Of a stretch of DNA of 41,694 nt, positions 436-15,265 are shown piece by piece. Below the pieces are notes generated by a model. It made no database searches, had not been told where the DNA came from, and saw nothing but the letters and a program-made list of their open reading frames with translations. Origin of the DNA: an alpha proteobacterium SCGC AAA280-B11 (GTDB lineage Bacteria > Pseudomonadota > Alphaproteobacteria > Pelagibacterales > Pelagibacteraceae); contig AQUH01000004.1 of the NCBI GenBank assembly GCA_000371745.1, positions 1-41,694 of the forward strand, given 5' to 3'. The translations under genes and the position numbers were made by a program. Numbering within the stretch: position 1 is the stretch's first letter; every line of letters starts with the position of its first letter.

Positions 436-1363
436 TTTTTTAAATATTGAGGAATTAAATAAATCTCAGAGGTTATTATACGGTCATGATGATTTATTTA
501 AAAAACTAACAAGTTTATACAAAATAAAAAAGCTACCTAATAAGATTATATTTAGTGGTTTCGATGGAGTAGGGAAGGCTACTTTTGTTTATCATTTAAT
601 AAATGCTATTTTATCAAGCCAAGAAGAGAATTCTTATAATCTTTCTGAAAAAAAAATTTTAGAAACCAATAAAAGTTATTTAGATTTGATTAATAATGTT
701 AATTTTAATTTAAAGCATTTAAAAGTAGATGATTCTAAAAAAATAATTTCAATAGAAGAAACTAGAGAAATAATAGATTTTTTTAATAAATCATCAATTA
801 ATAATAAGCCAAAAATTTTTTTTCTAGAAGGCGCAGAAAATCTTAATAAAAGCTCCTCAAACTCAATCTTAAAAGTTTTAGAAGAATTACCAGAAAATAA
901 TTATTTTTTTATTTCTCATATTGAAAATAAAAAATTATTGGAAACAATTAAATCCAGATGTTTTAACTGTAGACTTTTTGTTAGTTCCAAGGAAAGTCAA
1001 ATTATAAAAAAAAAGTTAATAGCTCAATATGACGCTAGTGACACTATTATTCCCAATTTAACGCCTGGAATAAACCTTAAAATAAGTCTTTTGTTTAAAG
1101 AACTAGACCTACATAAAAAAGATTTTTCAACAAAAATACTAGCTATCCAAAGTTATTATTTAGAAGAAAAATATAATAAAGTATTAGATTTAATGCATGT
1201 ATATATTGAAAATTACTTCGCTAATAATATAGAAAAAAATAATTTTTTTAAAAATTTTAGAATAAGAAATAAAATTAATAATATTATTCATAATATTAAT
1301 TCAATTAATAACGAGATTAAAAGTAGTTTTTATGAAATTAATCTTTTACTAGGCATCAAATAA
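422..1363 (+). CDS. holB: DNA polymerase III delta' subunit
   Basis: FSGFDGVGKATFVYHLINAIL (P-loop), FFLEGAENLNKSSSNSILKVLEELPENNYFFISH; tmk-holB-metG order. Confidence 0.85.
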   Translation: MQNVNFLNIEELNKSQRLLYGHDDLFKKLTSLYKIKKLPNKIIFSGFDGVGKATFVYHLINAILSSQEENSYNLSEKKILETNKSYLDLINNVNFNLKHLKVDDSKKIISIEETREIIDFFNKSSINNKPKIFFLEGAENLNKSSSNSILKVLEELPENNYFFISHIENKKLLETIKSRCFNCRLFVSSKESQIIKKKLIAQYDASDTIIPNLTPGINLKISLLFKELDLHKKDFSTKILAIQSYYLEEKYNKVLDLMHVYIENYFANNIEKNNFFKNFRIRNKINNIIHNINSINNEIKSSFYEINLLLGIK

Positions 1364-2884
1364 TGAAAAATTTTTACCTCACTACACCTATTTATTACCC
1401 TTCAGCAAAACCACATATGGGCCATGCTTATTCGAGTATATCAGCTGATGTCATAGCGAGATTTAAAAGAATTGAAGGCTATAAAGTCAATTTTTTAACA
1501 GGAACGGACGAGCACGGTCTTAAAATCCAAAGAGCTGCCGAACAAAAAAAAAAAAATCCAAAAGATTTTTGCGATGAAATTTCTAAAAACTTTATTGATC
1601 TTGCAAAAAAATTAAATCTTACAAATACTGATTTTATAAGAACTACAGAAGCTAGACACAAAAAAACTGTTACTAAACTGTGGAGTATTCTTGAAGAGAA
1701 AAAAGAAATTTATATTTCTAAATATTCTGGATGGTATTCCGTATCTGATGAAGCATTTTATACAGAGGACGAAATTGAAACTAAATCTGATCTTAAAATT
1801 TCTAAGATCTCAGGATCCAAAGTTGAGTGGATGGAAGAAGAATCTTATTTTTTTAGACTTTCAAAATGGCAAGAACCTTTATTAAAATATTATGAAGATA
1901 ATCCTAATTTTATTTCTCCAACAAGTAGAAAGAATGAAGTTATCAGTTTTGTTAAAAGTGGACTAAAAGATCTTTCAATTAGCAGAACTTCTTTTAAGTG
2001 GGGCATACCAGTTCCAAATAATGATAAGCATATAATCTATGTTTGGCTTGACGCTCTCACTAACTACATAAGCGCTTTGAATTATTTTGAAAAAGATAAT
2101 AAAAATGAATTTTGGCCTGCAGATGTTCATATTATAGGAAAAGATATTATTAGATTCCATTGTGTTTATTGGCCAGCTTTTCTATTGGCGGCTGGGATTT
2201 CTCCACCAAAAAAAAGTTTTTGCTCATGGGTGGATTCTTTCTGGAGAGGAAAAAATGTCTAAATCAAAAGGAAATATTTTAGATCCTTTAGAGATTATTG
2301 AAAATTACGGCCTAGATGAAATTAGATATTATTTAATGAAAGAAGTTATTTATGGCGAGGATGGAAAAATAACACCGGAAAATTTAATTAATTGCATTAA
2401 TAGCGATTTAGCCAACAATATTGGAAATTTATATCAAAGAGTAACTTCAATTCTTCATAGTAAGTTAAATTCTACAATACCAAATTGCCAGCCAAATGAA
2501 AATTCTGACATAAAAATATTAAATTTAGTTGAAGAGAATTTAAATACACTAATTAATACTTTTAATAAATTTGAAATTCACAATTATTTGAAAAATATTA
2601 TTCAATTATGTTCTGAAGTTAATAAATATGTAAATGATTCTGCTCCTTGGTCTATTAAAGAGGACAATCTGCAAAAAAGAAACGTAATAATATATGTGGT
2701 TTTAGATTTTATTAGAAAAGTATCTATACTACTTCAACCAATTATACCTGAAAAAACTAAAATAATACTAGATTCATTAGATGTTAATGAAAATGACAGA
2801 TTTATAAAAAATATAAATAAAAATTTTGCTCTTACGCATGGTAATAAAATTAAAAAAATAAATATTTTATTTAAAAAACAATGA
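1363..2884 (+). pseudogene. metG: Methionyl-tRNA synthetase interrupted by a single-base frameshift at an A8 run (ORFs 1363..2262 and 2162..2884)
   Basis: N-terminal ORF has TTPIYYPSAKPHMGHAYSS; the KMSKSKGN motif is in the second frame; removing one A from run 2208-2215 gives a continuous PPKKVFAHGW reading. Confidence 0.85.
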
Positions 2885-6543: not shown

Positions 6544-6562
6544 AACATTATAAATGTTTTTT
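6544..6562 (+). terminator. Rho-independent-like terminator after the glycosyltransferase gene
   Basis: AACATT-ATA-AATGTT stem-loop followed by a T run, immediately after stop at 6531. Confidence 0.5.
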
Positions 6563-7478
6563 ATAAATCTATTTTTGATAAAGCGTTATTTTTAAATAAA
6601 TTAGACTCCTTTATGTACCTTCTTACCATTTGAGTAGTTTTGTGGCCTGTCATATTCATAATACTTTTTTCATCAGCACCTGATCCTGCCGCTACTGTTG
6701 CAAAACCAGATCTTAAACTATGTCCTGAGTATTTTTTTGGATCAAATCCAGCTACAGATAAATATTTTTTAATTAAAATTGCTACCATTTTATCTGAGAT
6801 ATTAAAGACAAAGCCTTTTTTTGATTTAGAGATTTCAATCCATTTTTTTAAAAAAATAACAGGGCAAAAATTCTCATCTTTAAAATAGGGTATAGCCTTA
6901 ATCATACCTTCTCCAGATTGGTCAGTTTTTGATCTTTTGATAAAAATTTTTACACCTTCTTTTGTGAACTCCAAGTCTTCATGATCAATATTAACAAGCT
7001 CAGATCTTCTAAAGCCACCTGAAAATCCAATTAATATTAAGGCTTTGTCTCTATCCTTTCTTGATTCATCTTTTTCCGATTTTTCAATAATATTAATAAT
7101 TTCCTTTAATTCATTAATTAAAATTGGTTTTTTAGATTTCTGAAATACGCCCTTTTTTCTTTGTATCCCCATTAAATTTTCAATAATAAGTGGGTGCTTA
7201 ATATCTATATAGTGCCCTTTAACCTTGTGAATTACACTAATAGAAGCCAGTCTACGTTTTAACGTGCTTACTTTTGAATTTGATGACAGGTGAGTAATAT
7301 AGAAAGAAACGACTTTTGGCTGAGCTGGCAACGCACTAAAATTGTTTTTTTTGCAAAAATCAACAAAATGGTTAAAGTCAGATTTGTAAGCTCTAATTGT
7401 ATTGGCTGATTTGGAGGATTTAATATTGTCTAATGTCTCAATCTCAATAGAACTTAAATCTTTTACTAAATTTGACAT
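6561..7478 (-). CDS. Tyrosine recombinase/site-specific integrase
   Basis: Catalytic set present: GGFRRSEL (Arg), RSKTDQ (Lys), HSLRSGF (HxxR), MTGHKT (GH), VRRYI (Tyr); start placed at MSNLVKDLSS (7478); tracked ORF reaches 7523. Confidence 0.88.
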   Translation of the reverse strand: MSNLVKDLSSIEIETLDNIKSSKSANTIRAYKSDFNHFVDFCKKNNFSALPAQPKVVSFYITHLSSNSKVSTLKRRLASISVIHKVKGHYIDIKHPLIIENLMGIQRKKGVFQKSKKPILINELKEIINIIEKSEKDESRKDRDKALILIGFSGGFRRSELVNIDHEDLEFTKEGVKIFIKRSKTDQSGEGMIKAIPYFKDENFCPVIFLKKWIEISKSKKGFVFNISDKMVAILIKKYLSVAGFDPKKYSGHSLRSGFATVAAGSGADEKSIMNMTGHKTTQMVRRYIKESNLFKNNALSKIDL

Positions 7479-7482
7479 AAAT

Positions 7483-7507
7483 TTCCGATAACCATTAATT
7501 ATCGGAA
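7483..7507. repeat. Perfect inverted repeat TTCCGATAA-N7-TTATCGGAA just upstream of the recombinase start
   Basis: Read directly: TTCCGATAA (7483-7491), ccattaa, TTATCGGAA (7499-7507). Confidence 0.9.
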
Positions 7508-7566
7508 CTATTAATACAACCATAAATTGATGTCAATATCTAACAAAAGAGTTATTTATCATTATA

Positions 7567-8031: not shown

Positions 8032-8538
8032 TTAATAATAATGTCTTTTTGGCTTTTGAATCCTCCATTCTTGAGTACTGCCTAATCTGCCCTTATTGAT
8101 AGGCTCAAAAGGGTTAACCCAACCTCCATAAATAGACCAATCTTTCTTAGGCGTTGTAAAGTTGAATTTAATCTCTTTCTTCTTTAACTTTTCACGCTCC
8201 TTTTCAAGTTGAGCCTCACGTTCAGCTTCACGTTTCTTTTGGTAAGCATATAAATCATCATAAGAAGTATCGATCTTTTTAACTTCTTCCTTTGAATCGG
8301 AAACTTCAATGGCGGGTTTTTTAGCTTTTTTACCAGTCATTGATTCATATAAAGATGGATCATTAACTTCCATATAAGGTCCCCATTTTTCAATTAATTG
8401 ATTATGAGTATCTTTTATGAGCTGATTAAAAGTTGGCTTTGTTTTGACACGGCACATGCTTTTGTAACGAGGATTTGATAAAAAAACCCTTTTATTACGA
8501 GCATAATAACCGATTTTGGATGGATGTATTTTTTTCAT
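8032..8538 (-). CDS. Hypothetical protein with charged coiled-coil segment
   Basis: ORF of 168 aa; ATGA overlap with the upstream gene; KKREAEREAQLEKEREKLKKKE helix. Confidence 0.65.
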   Translation of the reverse strand: MKKIHPSKIGYYARNKRVFLSNPRYKSMCRVKTKPTFNQLIKDTHNQLIEKWGPYMEVNDPSLYESMTGKKAKKPAIEVSDSKEEVKKIDTSYDDLYAYQKKREAEREAQLEKEREKLKKKEIKFNFTTPKKDWSIYGGWVNPFEPINKGRLGSTQEWRIQKPKRHYY

Positions 8539-9104
8539 TTTCTACCTCCTTTTTTTCTTTTTTTCTGAGCTTTTAAAAGAAGTTCCTCATACAATTGAAC
8601 TCTGCCAATTAATCTTCCCTCGATGGTATTCAATTTCAATAAAGAGCTTCCGGCATTGGAATCTCTTGTGAATGCCACACCAATTAAAGATTGATTTTTT
8701 AGAACTTTATTCTGATCACCTTCTTTAAAATCAGAATGAGTTATTTTATCAGAGGCTTTAGGTTTGTAAGAGTCTGCATCAAATTCTAGAATTTCATTTC
8801 CATAAATTCCGGTTTCTATGACACCAACCCTTCTCAATCTCCATAATAACTCTATAAGTTTTATAAAGATTTCCTCTTCATACGCCCCAAATGGTTTGTA
8901 CACTTTAAACATGCTACTTTTGAAAGTATTAAATTCTTCAATACTTTCTCCAATAATCACATGTTTTTCTGCTGTTAGGCCATGAGTTAAAGCATTGCCA
9001 CTCACCTTCTCTTTTCCAGATACAGTTCTAGGGCCAGTGCTTTTCTTGGCGTTTTGTCTATTAGCTCTAACCTTGTTGTTAGAGACTACTTTTAGTTTAG
9101 TCAT
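8535..9104 (-). CDS. Hypothetical protein of the 'STGPRT..GK..VSGNALTHGLTA' type
   Basis: N-terminal motif NRQNAKKSTGPRTVSGKEKVSGNALTHGLTAEK; start placed at MTKLKVV (9104) rather than the tracked 9143. Confidence 0.7.
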   Translation of the reverse strand: MTKLKVVSNNKVRANRQNAKKSTGPRTVSGKEKVSGNALTHGLTAEKHVIIGESIEEFNTFKSSMFKVYKPFGAYEEEIFIKLIELLWRLRRVGVIETGIYGNEILEFDADSYKPKASDKITHSDFKEGDQNKVLKNQSLIGVAFTRDSNAGSSLLKLNTIEGRLIGRVQLYEELLLKAQKKRKKGGRK

Positions 9105-9264
9105 AATTGCTCCATAATAATTTGATCCAAACGCGCAACCCACATGGCTAACGCTTTCGCGATCAAAAAGTTTAGTAATTTAAGGGCCACCAGAGACTGG
9201 TAAAAATTTAAGGCCGCATAGTTTGGAGTAACTATGTAACTAAAGCTAAAAATAATTTAGCAAT
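9105..9264 (-). other. Hairpin-rich 5' leader of the 8535/8032 operon (possible structured RNA)
   Basis: Three perfect stem-loops: 9245-9261 (6 bp), 9217-9236 (7 bp), 9189-9201 (5 bp, flanked by GGCC on both sides). Confidence 0.4.
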
Positions 9265-9270
9265 ACATAC

Positions 9271-9300
9271 ATGATAAGCTACCGACTGACTCCGTGTCAA
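9271..9300 (-). promoter_or_regulatory. Sigma70-like promoter TTGACA-N18-TATCAT
   Basis: Reverse complement: TTGACA (9300-9295), 18-nt spacer, TATCAT (9276-9271). Confidence 0.6.
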
Positions 9301-9386
9301 CACCATCAAAAATCTTTCATTTTCAATGGTTTTTTCAATTTCTTATGGGAGGATATAGGATGAGTTTGAAGGTTATGGCGACTGGA

Positions 9387-11960
9387 TTAAGACTTTTTAA
9401 ATTTGTTTTTAAATATTTTTGTATAATTCTGACCTCTTTGCAAACCTGTTCCTAAAAAGTCACCCCATCCAACCCATGATTTAGAGTAAAATCTTGATGG
9501 GCTTTTGGGTATATCATTAGGAAAATTTTTATCTTTACTGAATAGAGAATATTCTAATTTTGATTTGATATTAAAATTTTTTATTTTGTTTTTTGCTTTA
9601 TTGTATGAAAGATAATTACATCCCAAAAATGTCGATAAGCCTTCCCACTTCTCTCTATAATATTTTTCTGGACTTACTGGAATATTGGGAGGAAAATTAT
9701 TAGACTTACTAAAAAGATACCATTCTTTTTGGTTCTTTAATTTAAATTTTTGAATAATATTTTTTGCATTTTCATAAGGTAAAAAATCTTTTTTATGTAC
9801 ATTGCCAGTTCCTAAAAAATCGCCCCAATTTGTCCACTCTTTAATATAAATTCTATGTGGAATACTTGAAACGTCTTTTGGTAATAATTTTTTTTTTGAA
9901 TAATTCATCCACTCTTCATAACTTTTTATTTTTAAAGATTGAGCATATTTTTTTGCTTCCTCATAAGATCTCCAGTTTCCAAATGCTACTCTGTCCCAAA
10001 CTTTTAATTGAATTGACTTGTTAAATTCTTCTTCATTAACTTTTGTAAGAACGTTTATTTTTGTAATACCATCTACTGGCGATCCGCCTTTAGGTATTGT
10101 TCCACTGCTTACAGCTCTTAAATATTCTATAATTCTTGTATCTTGTGTCGCTAAAGCTCTAATCGTTGCTACAATTTCTTCAAACGCTGTATCTTTTGCA
10201 GCTTCAGTTGCGTTTTCATTTTCAGGAATAATTAATGGAATAAGAATGTAACCAAACTTTTTTCCAGGTGATAATCTTAAAGCACGTCCTGCTGCTTGCA
10301 CAATATCTACTTTTGATTTCTTTGGATCTGTAAAGACCACACAATCTATTGCTGGAAGATCAACTCCTTCTGTAAGACATCTTGAATTTGTCATTAAACC
10401 TTTTGACTCTGCAAACTCTCTCATTTGTGATGATCTTTGATTAGTTGGCATATCTCCACTCACATGGAATGCTTTTAAATTTCCATACTCTGGATAAACC
10501 TTTGAGATTAGTTCTTGTTGAGCTTTAAAGTTATTGGCACGTCTTATTGATGAGTGAAATGAAATTGCATTTCTTATTCCAAGTTTTTTAATTGCTTTTC
10601 TTAACGCTAAAGCAGTTGCAAATTCTCTTGCCTTTATGTCATCAATTTCTTTTTTTATTTGTATGAATTTATTGTCGGTATAGATCGCCTCTATTTCAGG
10701 TTCACTAATTCCAAACGTTATTATCTTGTAATCTGAAATGATGGGCGGTTTTGCTTCAATAGCTTCTTTAAAACTTAGTTGATAAATAAGATCGCCATAG
10801 TCTCTAGGGTCATCCATTGAAAGATATTCTTCCTTATCACCTCTAAATAATCTCTCCGTTGCCGTCATAAACAGTCGATGCTTGATCTTAATATTCTTTT
10901 GATGAATTAAATGCGCCATTGGTTTTGAACCAAGCCCAACTGTCTTATGAGCTTCATCCATGATGCCAAGATCAAATGTAAAACCTTTAGATCCAGCTGC
11001 AGTTACTTTTCCAGATTGATATGTTGTAAATACTATCTTTGTATTTGCTTTAGATTTTAGAAACTTCTTAATTTCATTCTTATCTGTAGTTACATCAATT
11101 CCAAGTTCGTAAATATTGCTTACAAAATCATCCTGATCATCGCTAACTGTTTGATCTGAACATACACATAACCAATCGGGTTTTATTCCAGCAATTAAAT
11201 ATTCACGTGTCCAAACTTTTAATGTTTGTTGAAGTAGCGCTAGAGATGGTACGGCAATTAAAACTGATTTAGCTTTAAGTCTATTTGCAATCCAGAAAGC
11301 TGTTAAAGATTTCCCTGTTCCGCAAGGCATGATGACCTTGCCACGTTCTTTGGTTTTAAAGTATTCAATAGTTTTATTAATTGCTTTTACTTGATGAGGT
11401 CTTGGGGAAAGAGCTTTAGGTATAATTACTTTACCTTCGGTCTTTGCTTTAATTAAATTCCAACGTTCAAGATTATTATCATCTAATTCAAGAAAACTTT
11501 CTAAAGTTACAAAGCTTACGCCTTTTAATAATTTTGTTTTTAATGGTGGTTTATCAGCTGTGGTCATAACAAGACCAAGTGAAATATTTTTACAATTATT
11601 GAATGTTAAATTTGCAAAAGTTGCTAGATCACCTTTGATAGTAAGAGTATCTTTTGGATCTGATCTGTATTTAGATTGAATGGCCCAGTACTTATTATCA
11701 AAGGTTTCTGCAATTAAATCTATTCCTTCATCAGTGTTTGGTAGATTGAGTTTTCTTTTTAAATCTTCTTTAACTTCCTTTAATAGCCAAACATTCTTTA
11801 ATTTAGTCTGATATTCTGGAGTTGTTTGAAGAAAGTATTTACAAACGTTTTCAAATATATCGCCTGCAAATTTTGCCTGCCCTGATTTAGTAAGTTCTTC
11901 TAGCTTCTTATTTAAATCACTCCAGCTATTTGAGCTGGATATGAGTTTTAGGGATTGCAT
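9387..11960 (-). CDS. Mrr-like nuclease / DEAH-box superfamily 2 helicase with C-terminal integrase-type repeats (restriction/defence-like)
   Basis: N-term DEGIDLIAE...YWAIQSKYR (PD-(D/E)xK, QxK form); MPCGTGKS Walker A; MDEAHK; MTATERL; QAAGRALRLS; C-terminal WxxWGDFLGTG repeats. Confidence 0.8.
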   Translation of the reverse strand: MQSLKLISSSNSWSDLNKKLEELTKSGQAKFAGDIFENVCKYFLQTTPEYQTKLKNVWLLKEVKEDLKRKLNLPNTDEGIDLIAETFDNKYWAIQSKYRSDPKDTLTIKGDLATFANLTFNNCKNISLGLVMTTADKPPLKTKLLKGVSFVTLESFLELDDNNLERWNLIKAKTEGKVIIPKALSPRPHQVKAINKTIEYFKTKERGKVIMPCGTGKSLTAFWIANRLKAKSVLIAVPSLALLQQTLKVWTREYLIAGIKPDWLCVCSDQTVSDDQDDFVSNIYELGIDVTTDKNEIKKFLKSKANTKIVFTTYQSGKVTAAGSKGFTFDLGIMDEAHKTVGLGSKPMAHLIHQKNIKIKHRLFMTATERLFRGDKEEYLSMDDPRDYGDLIYQLSFKEAIEAKPPIISDYKIITFGISEPEIEAIYTDNKFIQIKKEIDDIKAREFATALALRKAIKKLGIRNAISFHSSIRRANNFKAQQELISKVYPEYGNLKAFHVSGDMPTNQRSSQMREFAESKGLMTNSRCLTEGVDLPAIDCVVFTDPKKSKVDIVQAAGRALRLSPGKKFGYILIPLIIPENENATEAAKDTAFEEIVATIRALATQDTRIIEYLRAVSSGTIPKGGSPVDGITKINVLTKVNEEEFNKSIQLKVWDRVAFGNWRSYEEAKKYAQSLKIKSYEEWMNYSKKKLLPKDVSSIPHRIYIKEWTNWGDFLGTGNVHKKDFLPYENAKNIIQKFKLKNQKEWYLFSKSNNFPPNIPVSPEKYYREKWEGLSTFLGCNYLSYNKAKNKIKNFNIKSKLEYSLFSKDKNFPNDIPKSPSRFYSKSWVGWGDFLGTGLQRGQNYTKIFKNKFKKS
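9430..9968 (-). repeat. Three tandem ~58-60-aa protein repeats in the helicase C-terminus
   Basis: Units end WTNWGDFLGTG, WEGLSTFLGCN, WVGWGDFLGTG, each with YxxAKxxIxxFxIKSxxEWxxFSKxxxFPxxIPxSPxxYY. Confidence 0.8.
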
Positions 11961-12332
11961 TTATTTTTTTACACAAGGAAATGTTATATATTCAAGATTG
12001 TCTATTTTATCCAATTCACCTTTTGAATTTTTTACATAAAAATCGTTGGATTTAAATAGACCGATTAATCTTCCGATTTCACTTTTAGATTTTAAATTTA
12101 TCCAACACCTTTTATCTTTTTCTTTGTATTCATCAACATTCGCATAAGACATTGCTAGAGAATAAAGTTTACCATCTTGACCTTTTACAGCATCAACTTT
12201 CGTAATAGTTAGTGCAAAACCAAAATATTTTGAACTGCCACCAGTTATATCTCCTGTCACATAATAGTCCGCTCTCGCTCCACTACTCATCAACAACATT
12301 CCAGATACTAGGAAGATGATTGTACGGGTCAT
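11961..12332 (-). CDS. Small predicted secreted protein, unknown function
   Basis: Signal peptide MTRTIIFLVSGMLLMSSGARA; TAA directly abuts the helicase ATG. Confidence 0.65.
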   Translation of the reverse strand: MTRTIIFLVSGMLLMSSGARADYYVTGDITGGSSKYFGFALTITKVDAVKGQDGKLYSLAMSYANVDEYKEKDKRCWINLKSKSEIGRLIGLFKSNDFYVKNSKGELDKIDNLEYITFPCVKK

Positions 12333-12656
12333 TTATCCTTTGTACTTAATTTTAAAAGTTTCAGGATATCGTTTTCTTTGATCCTCACAGTAAGAGTAGC
12401 TATCAATATATGATTTCATTTTTGTTTTGATTTTTAAATTTTTATTACCTAGATCCTTAATCATTTGTGCCTCTGTATAGTTTAAATCGCGATTATATCT
12501 TTCTGCAAATATATGATCAGCACATTTTTCTAAAGCATCTTTTTCGGAACTAGAAAAAAATTGTAAATATACAAACAGCGTAAGTAGCAAAATTAATAAA
12601 AACCACCTATACTTCATAAATCTGGATCCTAATTTATAATAAATATTTTTATTCAT
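12333..12656 (-). CDS. Small membrane-anchored protein, unknown function
   Basis: One N-terminal hydrophobic segment (FLLILLLTLFVYLQFF); TAA abuts the next ATG; Met14 is an alternative start. Confidence 0.6.
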   Translation of the reverse strand: MNKNIYYKLGSRFMKYRWFLLILLLTLFVYLQFFSSSEKDALEKCADHIFAERYNRDLNYTEAQMIKDLGNKNLKIKTKMKSYIDSYSYCEDQRKRYPETFKIKYKG

Positions 12657-12684
12657 TCTATAATCTCAATCAAGGTTCTGGTCA

Positions 12685-13665
12685 TTAGAAACAGCTCAAC
12701 ATATTTGCATGATATTGGCAATTCATTGGTGCTCTTGTAGCAGGTCTTTGCGGTGACATCATTCTCAGTCCACTTTCCATTAGTGCCAAACTATCTGCTG
12801 TGTTAGCAGCTATAGCTTGTTGTTGTGCTGCATACGCTTGCATAATTGCTGCATTGGTTTGAGCATTAGCTAACTTTTCTCTTGAGGCGGCATTTACTTT
12901 AGCCAAATCAGCATTTGCTTTTGCTAATTGTTTTTGAAGCTCAAGTTTTTCTAATTCAATCTCTGCAGTATAGATTTTAAATATACAATCTTTAAAATTA
13001 TCAGATCCTTTTCTAAAGCCATATTTCTCATTACAAATATAAGCTCTTCGATCGTCAGGTGACATTTTGGCTATTTTATCAGCTGCCTGTTTTGCTTCAG
13101 TTTCTAATTTCTTTTTACTAGCTTCAACTAAATCTTGTTTCTTTTTTTGCTCCGCTAGATCTTTCTTTTCTTGTTCTAATAAGCAATTATTGTATTTTTC
13201 AGTTCCCTTTGTATATCCCCAATTACATTTTCCTGCATAAAGTTTTTCTAGTTCATTAGTTCTTAATTGTTTTTTTTTGTTTATTTCATCTTTTAATTCT
13301 TTATCTAATTCAACTTGAAATAACCTAATTTCATTTTTAGACTCAAGGTAAACTTTTTCAACTGCTTCTTCTCTTTCTTTAATAAACTTTGGATTAGCGC
13401 TTAATGACTTTTTTCTCCCAAAAAAAGATTGGTTTTCGGGATCATCTTGCATTCCTTTGTTATAGTATGTTGACTCAACATTTTCTATTTTTTGGTAAAC
13501 TGATCTTGGTATTAAAATGCCATTATTACCACATCCAGCATTTTTTTCGTGCATGTCGGCAAAATGCTTATCAGTATAATAACAGTACATATATTGTGTT
13601 TCAGAAAATGAAGGTTTACTAAACACCAAAAACAATAATCCTAATCCCCAAAATATCTTCTTCAT
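12685..13665 (-). CDS. Predicted secreted coiled-coil protein, unknown function
   Basis: Signal peptide MKKIFWGLGLLFLVFSKPSFS; long Lys/Glu/Ala-rich helical region; paired Cys residues. Confidence 0.65.
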   Translation of the reverse strand: MKKIFWGLGLLFLVFSKPSFSETQYMYCYYTDKHFADMHEKNAGCGNNGILIPRSVYQKIENVESTYYNKGMQDDPENQSFFGRKKSLSANPKFIKEREEAVEKVYLESKNEIRLFQVELDKELKDEINKKKQLRTNELEKLYAGKCNWGYTKGTEKYNNCLLEQEKKDLAEQKKKQDLVEASKKKLETEAKQAADKIAKMSPDDRRAYICNEKYGFRKGSDNFKDCIFKIYTAEIELEKLELQKQLAKANADLAKVNAASREKLANAQTNAAIMQAYAAQQQAIAANTADSLALMESGLRMMSPQRPATRAPMNCQYHANMLSCF

Positions 13666-13666
13666 T

Positions 13667-13691
13667 CTAGATTCAGTTTACCAAAATCTAG
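13667..13691. repeat. Inverted repeat CTAGATT-N11-AATCTAG upstream of the 13665 ORF
   Basis: Arms 13667-13673 and 13685-13691 read directly. Confidence 0.7.
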
Positions 13692-13783
13692 GTGTGGAGA
13701 TATGTAAAAAAAAGAGACTTAATTAGATCATTTTCTTAGCAAAAAACTTAATTATATAATAAAGGACTATTAAATTAATAATA

Positions 13784-14647
13784 ATGTCCATTTTAAATAG
13801 CATTAGCATCGTAATAATTTTTAGCATCACTTGGTCCAGTGCCTTTATTGTGGGAAAAATAGGCTTATTTTACATAAATGAATACGCTTTACTCTCATCT
13901 CGTTTCTTTATTGCATCTCTAATACTACTGCCAATCTGGCTTATTAAGAGAAATATTAAAAATAAAAAAAAGATAATAAAAGACGGAATAATATTGGGGT
14001 TGTTAAATAATGTGATTTATTTAGGGCTTATTTTTTCTTCTTTAAATTATATTTCTCCAGAACTAGTGACAATAATTGCAAGTTGCTCCCCTTTTATAAC
14101 ATGCATTATTGTATGGATTACAAAAGTTGAAAAATTTAGTTACACAGTTTTGCTTGGAATAATATTAGGTTTTCTTGGGGTTTTATTAATAACTACTTAT
14201 CGCCCTATTGGAAGCATTGAACCTATTGGGATTTTGCAAGCATTTATAGGAACTATAGGGTTTTCATTTGGAACCATATATTATAAAAAAAATTCCGTAA
14301 CTCATAATCCTCAGCTTATAAATTTTTGGCAATCGCTTACTGCTGCTGTGGTCTTGCTACCGTTTGCCTTGTATTTCACTAAAGCAAACACGATGATTAC
14401 AAAAGAATTAATTTTAGCAATTTTATATTTAGTCTTCGTAGTAACTATTGGAAGTATGTGGTTGTGGTTAATTATTATTAAAAACTTAGGGGCGTCCGTA
14501 GCCTCTAGCGCGCATCTTTTAAATCCAGCTATTGGGTTAATATTAGCCTATATTTTCTTTCAAAAAGAATTTTTGCTTACAGATTGGATTGGAATTTTAG
14601 TAATAACCGCTGGACTTTTTATAGTCACACGTTTTAAAAAAAAATAA
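13784..14647 (+). CDS. EamA/DMT-family transporter
   Basis: About 10 hydrophobic helices; FSITWSSAFIVGKIGL start and LLNPAIGLILAYIFFQKE repeat typical of EamA. Confidence 0.85.
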   Translation: MSILNSISIVIIFSITWSSAFIVGKIGLFYINEYALLSSRFFIASLILLPIWLIKRNIKNKKKIIKDGIILGLLNNVIYLGLIFSSLNYISPELVTIIASCSPFITCIIVWITKVEKFSYTVLLGIILGFLGVLLITTYRPIGSIEPIGILQAFIGTIGFSFGTIYYKKNSVTHNPQLINFWQSLTAAVVLLPFALYFTKANTMITKELILAILYLVFVVTIGSMWLWLIIIKNLGASVASSAHLLNPAIGLILAYIFFQKEFLLTDWIGILVITAGLFIVTRFKKK

Positions 14648-14656
14648 TAGAAATAT

Positions 14657-15265
14657 CTATTTAAGCTCCCCTATTGCTCCAACAGAAATAATAAATTTCA
14701 TAGCATCTTCAAAATTCATATTTAAATAAATAATATCTTTTTTTGGAATTAAAACTAAAAAACCACTAGTTGGATTTGGAGTTGTTGGAATAAAAACATT
14801 CACTAAGGTGTCATTAATTTTTGATGATATTTGTTTACTATTCTCATTTGTGGCAAATCCTACAGCCCAAGATCCAGATCTTGGAAACTCAATAAGAACT
14901 ACTTTTTTATTGCTAGAGCCATCTTCAGCGGATTGAAAACTTTTAGTAAATTGAGTTGCTCCTGAATAAACTGAACGCAATACGGGCACTTTTTGTAATA
15001 ATTGTTCACCTAATATCAAAATTTTTTTTCCAAAATAACTCAATGAAACAAAGCCTATAAGCACTGTGATTAAAACAGCTATCAAAATTTCTAATCCTGG
15101 AATTCTAAAAGGAAGATACTTGTTAGGATTAATTGCATCCGGAACAATACGAGAAAAAACGTCTATAACTAAAAATGTTAGATATACCGTTATAAATATT
15201 GGTATTAATGTTATTATACCTGCTAAAAAATAGTTTCTAATTTTTGTTATTAAAGATGATTTCAT
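14657..15265 (-). CDS. DUF502 family membrane protein
   Basis: NYFLAGIITLIPIFITVYLTF, LQKVPVLRSVYSGATQ, VFIPTTPNPTSGFLVLIPKKD. Confidence 0.85.
   Translation of the reverse strand: MKSSLITKIRNYFLAGIITLIPIFITVYLTFLVIDVFSRIVPDAINPNKYLPFRIPGLEILIAVLITVLIGFVSLSYFGKKILILGEQLLQKVPVLRSVYSGATQFTKSFQSAEDGSSNKKVVLIEFPRSGSWAVGFATNENSKQISSKINDTLVNVFIPTTPNPTSGFLVLIPKKDIIYLNMNFEDAMKFIISVGAIGELK

What the first reader, a model, noticed from the sequence alone, without database searches (positions are those of the whole stretch)
9387..11960. Mrr-like nuclease + DEAH helicase + integrase-type repeats without a methyltransferase
One chain joins a QxK-type PD-(D/E)xK domain, a full SF2 helicase and three repeats ending in W..WGDFLGTG. 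The repeat resembles the 'phage-integrase repeat unit' (PF14882, from memory). There is no methyltransferase or specificity subunit nearby, so this is not a standard R-M system. The repeats could be a DNA-recognition module on a stand-alone defence effector.
Basis: partly seen in the sequence, partly recalled or inferred. Interest (0 to 1): 0.6.

Follow-up and report, generated by a model that had tools for sequence, protein, structure and literature searches.

The report
Methylase-free nuclease motor with swappable repeats
A marine bacterium carries a DNA-cutting motor protein related to restriction enzymes, but instead of the usual self-marking and target-reading parts it ends in a string of small repeats that relatives replace wholesale, which looks like an exchangeable address tag for attacking foreign DNA without marking its own.

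Summary
The minus-strand ORF 9387-11960 (857 aa) is one intact chain: Mrr-type PD-(D/E)xK nuclease with a QxK motif, full SF2 motor, three ~60-aa repeats. Nuclease plus motor match the type ISP enzyme LlaBIII (sequence E 1e-53; Foldseek E 4e-31); homology stops in the coupler. The methyltransferase and TRD are absent, and repeats take their place.

What is new: eleven close marine relatives (five chromosomal, six on virus-classed contigs) keep the nuclease-motor core under strong purifying selection (dN/dS 0.05-0.12 in close pairs) but carry different arrays of 3-7 repeats. Pairs with 89-95% identical cores share only 34-51% in the array; the break is at the first repeat, and synonymous divergence jumps there too, so arrays are exchanged, not merely fast-evolving. 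Variation inside arrays concentrates on helices 2 and 3; the scaffold is conserved. The same repeat is fused to GIY-YIG nucleases and other SF2 helicases in viral contigs.

Most likely: an MTase-free, array-addressed restriction enzyme on mobile elements and variable chromosomal sites of SAR11-like bacteria. DNA binding by the repeats, targets, self-avoidance and anti-phage activity are inferred, not shown. New variant of a known kind.

The parts
9387..11960 (-). 857-aa nuclease-motor-repeat protein (P0001)
11526..11825 (-). Mrr_cat_2 PD-(D/E)xK nuclease domain, residues 46-145; D77, D81, Q95, K97
   Evidence: Pfam 49.3 bits; aligned with LlaBIII D74/D78/Q92/K94; invariant in relatives
10272..11411 (-). 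SF2 helicase-like motor, residues 184-563 (ResIII + Helicase_C), with Walker A GTGKS, DEAH, TAT, QAAGRALR
9987..10133 (-). linker / start of coupler-like region, residues about 610-658; LlaBIII homology ends at residue 615
   Evidence: low-confidence loop 626-639 and helix 643-658 in the AF2 model
9804..9986 (-). repeat 1, residues 659-719
   Evidence: AF2 four helices
9615..9797 (-). repeat 2, residues 722-782 (the only part, 755-780, that PF14882 matches)
9444..9623 (-). repeat 3, residues 780-839
11961..13665 (-). three co-directional small genes directly upstream (326, 107, 123 aa; the 326- and 123-aa products look secreted), no family match; passenger genes of the same variable stretch, link to the nuclease not shown
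9144..14656 (.). variable chromosomal stretch between the 202-aa gene (8535-9143) and the DUF502 gene (14657-15265); other cargo in G001, almost nothing in G004

Best explanation
It is a methyltransferase-free, single-chain ATP-dependent restriction enzyme whose target is set by an exchangeable array of ~60-aa DNA-binding repeats. Proposed working: the C-terminal array binds a long sequence in incoming phage, plasmid or rival-element DNA; binding switches on the SF2 motor, which tracks along duplex DNA as in type ISP enzymes; the N-terminal Mrr nuclease then cuts when the motor stalls or meets another. Because several repeats could specify a long site, the site may simply be absent from the host's ~1.3 Mb genome, so no self-methylation is needed. 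Specificity changes by replacing or rearranging the array while the nuclease-motor stays constant, and the gene moves as cargo on integrative, satellite-like elements and at variable chromosomal sites. Shown here: architecture, intact active-site motifs, purifying selection on the core, wholesale array turnover with a sharp boundary, variable repeat number, hypervariable helix-2/3 positions, mobile context. Inferred: DNA binding and sequence reading by the repeats, translocation, target choice, self-avoidance, anti-phage role.
For: Type ISP homology of nuclease+motor: phmmer to LlaBIII over residues 13-615, E 1.3e-53; Foldseek of the full model, top hit 4xqk E 4.4e-31. Catalytic motifs kept in 12 of 12 proteins, core dN/dS 0.05-0.12 in close pairs. 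Array turnover, core versus best repeat match: L087/L090 95% vs 34-43%, L015/L017 93% vs 41-51%, L017/L018 93% vs 38-48%, L015/L018 89% vs 40-46%. Synonymous divergence core vs array: 0.33 vs 0.56 (P 4e-8), 0.37 vs 0.62 (P 8e-6), 0.39 vs 0.71 (P 7e-9), so the DNA itself has a different history. Repeat numbers 3, 4, 5, 6, 7 in marine members, 5 and 9 in two other MAGs. Within arrays the least conserved positions are on helix 2 (21, 22, 25, 26, 28) and at helix 3 (40, 42, 43, 44), while A9, L16, W24, P34, P38, Y45, W50, G58 are kept. Same repeats on GIY-YIG nucleases and other SF2 helicases, and Pfam's own name ties them to integrases. Convergent design: Rhodococcus L007 has Mrr_cat_2 + SF2 + eight HA repeats, unrelated in profile comparison. 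Context: L018 carries an integrase and a TOTE-type primase; L003 has a PDC-S02 phage-defence-candidate gene in the same gene chain upstream (E 1e-147).
Against: No binding, cleavage or phage data exist. The 3-repeat AF2 fold has no PDB match, so no known DNA-binding fold supports it. Only three core/array pairs are unsaturated enough for the synonymous test; aligning non-orthologous repeats also inflates divergence, although the best repeat anywhere in the other array is no closer. Self-avoidance by a long site is untested, and the length of DNA read per repeat is unknown. A CcrM-type MTase is present in G000 and G048, so protection by a shared host mark is not excluded. The window's neighbours are not recognised defence genes.
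Confidence: 0.55

Rival explanations
1. Modification- or structure-dependent (type IV-like) nuclease: the repeats bind DNA loosely or read a modified base or DNA structure, as SauUSI does with one chain of nuclease, SF2 motor and recognition domain, and no MTase.
For: SauUSI 7clg is a structural hit of the full model (rank 10); no cognate MTase in G048 for four families; such enzymes need no self-protection.
Against: Wholesale array exchange, variable repeat number and hypervariable helix faces fit changing sequence targets better than one constant mark; the same repeats sit on GIY-YIG nucleases, a class in which a C-terminal DNA-binding region normally gives site specificity (general knowledge).
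Confidence: 0.18
2. Element-lifecycle factor: a helicase-nuclease used by the mobile element for its own replication, transfer or homing, the repeats binding the element's own DNA (compare helicase-like genes with HA repeats near the ends of actinobacterial linear replicons).
For: In L015 and L018 the gene lies beside a tyrosine integrase; the Rhodococcus HA relative lies about 12 kb from the end of a linear plasmid; the repeat is named after integrases.
Against: L017 and L018 share a 100% identical and a 97% identical upstream neighbour yet have unrelated arrays; L015 and L018 have 89% identical cores but integrases only 37% identical, so core and element backbone are not tied; in the gene lists of four chromosomal copies no integrase is evident by eye.
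Confidence: 0.12
3. Restriction-modification in disguise: self DNA is protected by a separate MTase (CcrM or an unsampled one), and the repeats only replaced the TRD.
For: CcrM-like genes in G000 and complete G048; G000 is only 55% complete.
Against: Complete G048 has no other hit in PF02384, PF01555, PF07669 or PF00145 beyond CcrM- and PrmC-like genes; a single fixed CcrM motif could hardly serve many different arrays.
Confidence: 0.08
4. Sensor of phage infection rather than of sequence (Hna, Nhi or Hachiman style), with the array as a protein-protein sensor under an arms race.
For: Single-chain or paired nuclease-helicase defences triggered by phage proteins or DNA damage are known (PMC13381803, PMC12278908); hypervariable surface positions would also fit protein recognition.
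Against: Fold relationship is to type ISP translocases, not to DinG-like Hna (Hna is N-terminal SF2 and C-terminal nuclease, PMC13381803); the same repeats occur on DNA-acting enzymes with other catalytic domains.
Confidence: 0.07

Closest known systems
Type ISP restriction-modification enzymes LlaBIII / LlaGI (PDB 4xqk, 5ffj)
   Same: Single chain; N-terminal Mrr-type nuclease with D..D..QxK; SF2 motor; homology over residues 13-615 of 857; top structural match.
   Different: No methyltransferase, no TRD, most of the coupler missing; three repeats instead; 857 aa against 1578.
Mrr_cat_2 + SF2 + HA-repeat (PF03457) 'DEAD/DEAH box helicases' of Actinobacteria, e.g. Rhodococcus WP_064689746 (L007)
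   Same: Same nuclease-motor core (32.5% identity, residues 30-644), MTase-free, C-terminal repeat array (8 HA repeats).
   Different: HA and INT_rpt repeats are not related by profile comparison.
PF14882 INT_rpt (integrase repeat unit)
   Same: Best Pfam match of the repeats; other arrays of the same repeat found here reach 32 bits.
   Different: Window repeats are below the gathering score (21.3 vs 26.5); no described function or structure; named after integrases, not nuclease-motors.
SauUSI (type IV ATP-dependent restriction, PDB 7clg)
   Same: MTase-free single chain: nuclease, SF2 motor, recognition part.
   Different: Unrelated nuclease and recognition parts; modification-dependent (general knowledge; PMC7913695 describes its structure); no repeat array.
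Hna single-chain nuclease-helicase defence
   Same: One-gene SF2 helicase plus PD-(D/E)xK nuclease in alphaproteobacteria (PMC13381803).
   Different: Opposite domain order, DinG-like, ssDNA exonuclease triggered by phage SSB, no repeats.

Membership tests
Type ISP restriction-modification | N-terminal Mrr-type nuclease with D..D..QxK | tested here: met
Type ISP restriction-modification | SF2 translocase motor of the LlaBIII kind | tested here: met
   sequence and fold
Type ISP restriction-modification | In-chain methyltransferase | tested here: not met
   no MTase match in the chain; homology ends at residue 615
Type ISP restriction-modification | In-chain TRD | tested here: not met
   C-terminus is three repeats
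Type ISP restriction-modification | ATP-driven translocation and collision-dependent cleavage | not testable with these tools
   needs biochemistry
PF14882 INT_rpt | Score above the curated cut-off | tested here: inconclusive
   21.3 of 26.5 bits in the window protein; proteins with the same repeat found here: 25.6 in L055, 32.4 in L056, 32.5 in L066
HA-repeat nuclease-helicases | PF03457 HA repeats | tested here: not met
   no HA match in the window protein; profile-profile comparison P-value 0.69
Type IV modification-dependent restriction | Dependence on modified target DNA | not testable with these tools
   no known modified-base reader domain found by Pfam, but dependence itself needs an assay
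Anti-phage defence system | Lowers phage or plasmid success in vivo | not testable with these tools
   only context: mobile elements, PDC-S02 neighbour in L003
Standard R-M system | Cognate methyltransferase in the locus or genome | tested here: not met
   none near; only CcrM- and PrmC-like in complete G048 for four MTase families; the window's own genome G000 is only 55% complete

The most novel reading that the evidence does not exclude
A protein-coded, modular DNA-reading array, comparable in principle to TAL effectors: each repeat reads a few base pairs through helix-2 and helix-3 residues, arrays of 3-9 repeats address a restriction motor to long sites in phages or rival elements, and populations change targets by swapping arrays, giving sequence-addressed immunity with neither guide RNA nor self-methylation.
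Probability: 0.3. Interest if true: 0.88.

Novelty: new variant of a known kind. Interest (0 to 1): 0.63.

Why it matters
Nuclease-motor restriction enzymes are thought to need a methyltransferase or a modified target to spare the host. This family keeps an intact type ISP cutting-and-tracking machine, has neither an in-chain nor an obvious cognate methyltransferase, and has an array that turns over as a unit while the motor is conserved. If the array reads sequence, it is a natural modular DNA-recognition code with no described structure or function, and it explains how an MTase-free enzyme can be addressed. It also gives a clean test system, because natural pairs exist with 93-95% identical motors and unrelated arrays.

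Tried and rejected
Integrase at 6561-7523 as the island's own integrase: rejected, it is 87% identical and syntenic in G001 and G004 without the nuclease, so a resident gene. Guide RNA or structured RNA nearby: Rfam finds only tRNA-Lys. Flanking att-like direct repeats: only AT-rich pairs of 71-89% identity, nothing convincing. Promoter-like sites are at shuffle level and terminator-like sites slightly above it. Foldseek of the repeats: best E 3.2, uninformative. Homology of INT_rpt with HA repeats: none. Array divergence as relaxed selection only: rejected in three unsaturated pairs by the synonymous jump; other pairs are saturated and uninformative. Phage and plasmid collections hold no full-length member: best coverage 67% and 79% of the query. 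An arbitrary DNA pattern search told nothing.

Full report
What is there. The ORF at 9387-11960 lies on the minus strand and encodes 857 aa without interruption. Pfam finds Mrr_cat_2 at 46-145 (49.3 bits, cut-off 22), ResIII at 184-368 and Helicase_C at 453-563; INT_rpt PF14882 appears once, below its cut-off. The closest solved proteins are the type ISP enzymes LlaBIII (E 1.3e-53, residues 13-615) and LlaGI. In the alignment, D77, D81, Q95 and K97 fall on LlaBIII D74, D78, Q92 and K94 (positions counted from the printed alignment; that this D..D..QxK set is the nuclease motif is established knowledge of the Mrr/PD-(D/E)xK family). The AF2 model of the whole chain (pLDDT 80, pTM 0.69) matches LlaBIII 4xqk best (E 4.4e-31). 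After residue ~615 most of the LlaBIII coupler, and its MTase and TRD, have no counterpart; three ~60-aa repeats follow.

The repeats. A profile built from the obvious copies finds repeats at 659-719, 722-782 and 780-839. AF2 of the three-repeat stretch with a 27-row alignment gives about pLDDT 85-95 within repeats, four helices each, and pTM 0.48, so the arrangement between repeats is uncertain. Foldseek finds no PDB relative. No paper in the held library describes a function; the only mention is a modelling survey that lists PHINT_rpt PF14882 among families without a known structure.

Relatives. IMG/VR gave L002, L003, L015 (identical to L016), L017, L018 and L019; genomes gave G048, G575 (L087), G624 (L088), G701 (L089, broken after repeat 1) and G500 (L090). 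In the order, 6 of 397 genomes have it, the window's own included. More distant members are in a Lentisphaerae MAG (L004) and, N-terminally cut by the contig end, in a MAG labelled Chryseobacterium gleum (L005). Repeat counts: window 3; L015 4; L002 and L018 5; G048, L087, L088 and L090 6; L019 7; L004 5; L005 9; L003 and L017 run off their contigs.

Array exchange. Cores (residue 1 to ~655) are conserved while arrays are not: L087/L090 95% core, best repeat match 34-43%; L015/L017 93% and 41-51%; L017/L018 93% and 38-48%; L015/L018 89% and 40-46%. Only L002/L003 share an array (90-98%), which shows that arrays can be inherited intact. DNA identity drops from ~80-90% to ~45-65% at about codon 650-675. 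In the three pairs whose core synonymous differences are unsaturated, pS rises from 0.33 to 0.56, 0.37 to 0.62 and 0.39 to 0.71 (Fisher P 4e-8, 8e-6, 7e-9). Relaxed or positive selection on the protein alone would not raise synonymous divergence, so the array DNA has another history. Other pairs are saturated and say nothing. Core dN/dS is 0.05-0.12 in the close pairs and 0.14-0.21 in distant, near-saturated ones. L087, L089 and L090 lie upstream of the same RlmB-like and tuf genes, so they look like alternative versions at one hotspot (gene names read from the translations).

Recognition-like variability. In 101 repeats from 21 proteins, repeats of one array resemble each other more than repeats of other arrays (0.451 vs 0.356; 0 of 300 label shuffles reach it), as expected from local duplication. 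Within arrays the 14 least conserved positions are 42, 43, 25, 21, 40, 5, 2, 35, 22, 1, 28, 44, 26 and 47; helix 2 of the model covers columns 21-29 and helix 3 columns 41-44, so nine of the 14 lie on or next to helices 2 and 3, with 21/25/28 and 22/26 spaced as on a helical face. A9, V13, L16, W24, Y27, P34, P38, P41, Y45, W50, L57 and G58 are kept. This is what a recognition surface on a fixed scaffold looks like; it does not prove DNA reading.

Other homes of the repeat. A scan for WGDFLGTG in IMG/VR found it on GIY-YIG nucleases with 2-5 repeats (L053, L055, L061), on another SF2 helicase with four C-terminal repeats (L066), on large chains with N-terminal repeats, an SF2/SNF2 motor and Methyltransf_8 (L052, L062, L070), on a repeat-helicase chain (L071) and as stand-alone or cut arrays (L056, L064, L067). 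The recurring theme is fusion to enzymes that act on DNA or nucleic acid. A parallel solution exists: Rhodococcus L007 has the same Mrr_cat_2-SF2 core with eight HA repeats, unrelated to INT_rpt by profile comparison.

Context. The nearby tyrosine recombinase is a resident gene. In L018 the relative sits with a tyrosine integrase and a TOTE-type primase, which resembles phage satellites (PMC10803314 and PMC9122126, read as abstracts only, describe small marine satellites and antiviral hotspots in satellites). L003 has PDC-S02, a phage-defence candidate, and L002/L003 a PDDEXK_1 (Cas4-like) gene in the same gene chain. L017 and L018 have an identical upstream neighbour but different arrays.

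No methyltransferase. Scanned neighbours hold none. In complete G048 and partial G000, PF02384 and PF07669 hit only a ~285-aa PrmC-like frame and (PF02384) the CcrM-like frame, PF01555 the CcrM-like frame (plus one weak broken frame in G000), PF00145 nothing. The names CcrM and PrmC are inferred from size and family.

Mechanism. For type ISP enzymes, target binding by MTase-TRD stimulates the ATPase (PMC7049714) and nucleases are activated when motors collide (PMC4666363). I propose that the array takes over target binding. Long sites would make self-cleavage unlikely without methylation. Steps shown: anatomy, conserved motifs, array exchange, mobile context. Steps inferred: DNA binding, sequence reading, translocation, restriction, host sparing.

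Verdict. A real, intact and unusual protein. It is not a type ISP R-M enzyme, because two defining parts were tested and are missing, but it probably works like the restriction half of one. New variant of a known kind; interest 0.63, higher if a modular reading code is confirmed.

Noticed in passing
window 1363-2884: The methionyl-tRNA synthetase gene is split into two overlapping frames (1363-2262 and 2162-2884) near an A-rich stretch at about 2210; in relatives L043 and L044 the two matches lie in one frame. Probably a homopolymer sequencing error, or a broken core gene.
   Followed up: partly
window 8535-9143; L036:17177-17737; L043:8802-9371: Uncharacterised gene with the motif KKSTGPRT..GK..SGNAL.HGL, present in G000, G001, G004 and close to the nuclease gene in G048; no Pfam or PHROG match. 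May mark a SAR11 variable site.
   Followed up: partly
L089:8549-11640: In G701 the array is broken after repeat 1; later repeats survive in a separate ORF at 11320-11640, so the enzyme seems to be lost by array damage.
   Followed up: no
L087, L089, L090 upstream of the RlmB-like and tuf genes: Shared chromosomal hotspot holding nuclease-motor versions with different arrays.
   Followed up: partly
L053, L055, L058, L061, L073: GIY-YIG nucleases with 2-5 C-terminal INT_rpt repeats in viral contigs: possible homing endonucleases with an undescribed DNA-binding module.
   Followed up: partly
L052, L062, L070, L072: Large viral-contig proteins with 4-6 N-terminal repeats, an SF2/SNF2 motor and a C-terminal Methyltransf_8 domain (about 1200 aa).
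   Followed up: no
L003:1658-2593: PDC-S02 phage-defence-candidate gene present in L003 but absent from the otherwise near-identical L002, showing cargo gain or loss close to the nuclease-motor gene.
   Followed up: no
L015:6536-7789, L015:7796-8362: Proteins of 418 and 189 aa in the same element's cargo zone without a PADLOC match (418-aa one also without a Pfam match); the first has a nuclease-like N-terminus by eye.
   Followed up: no
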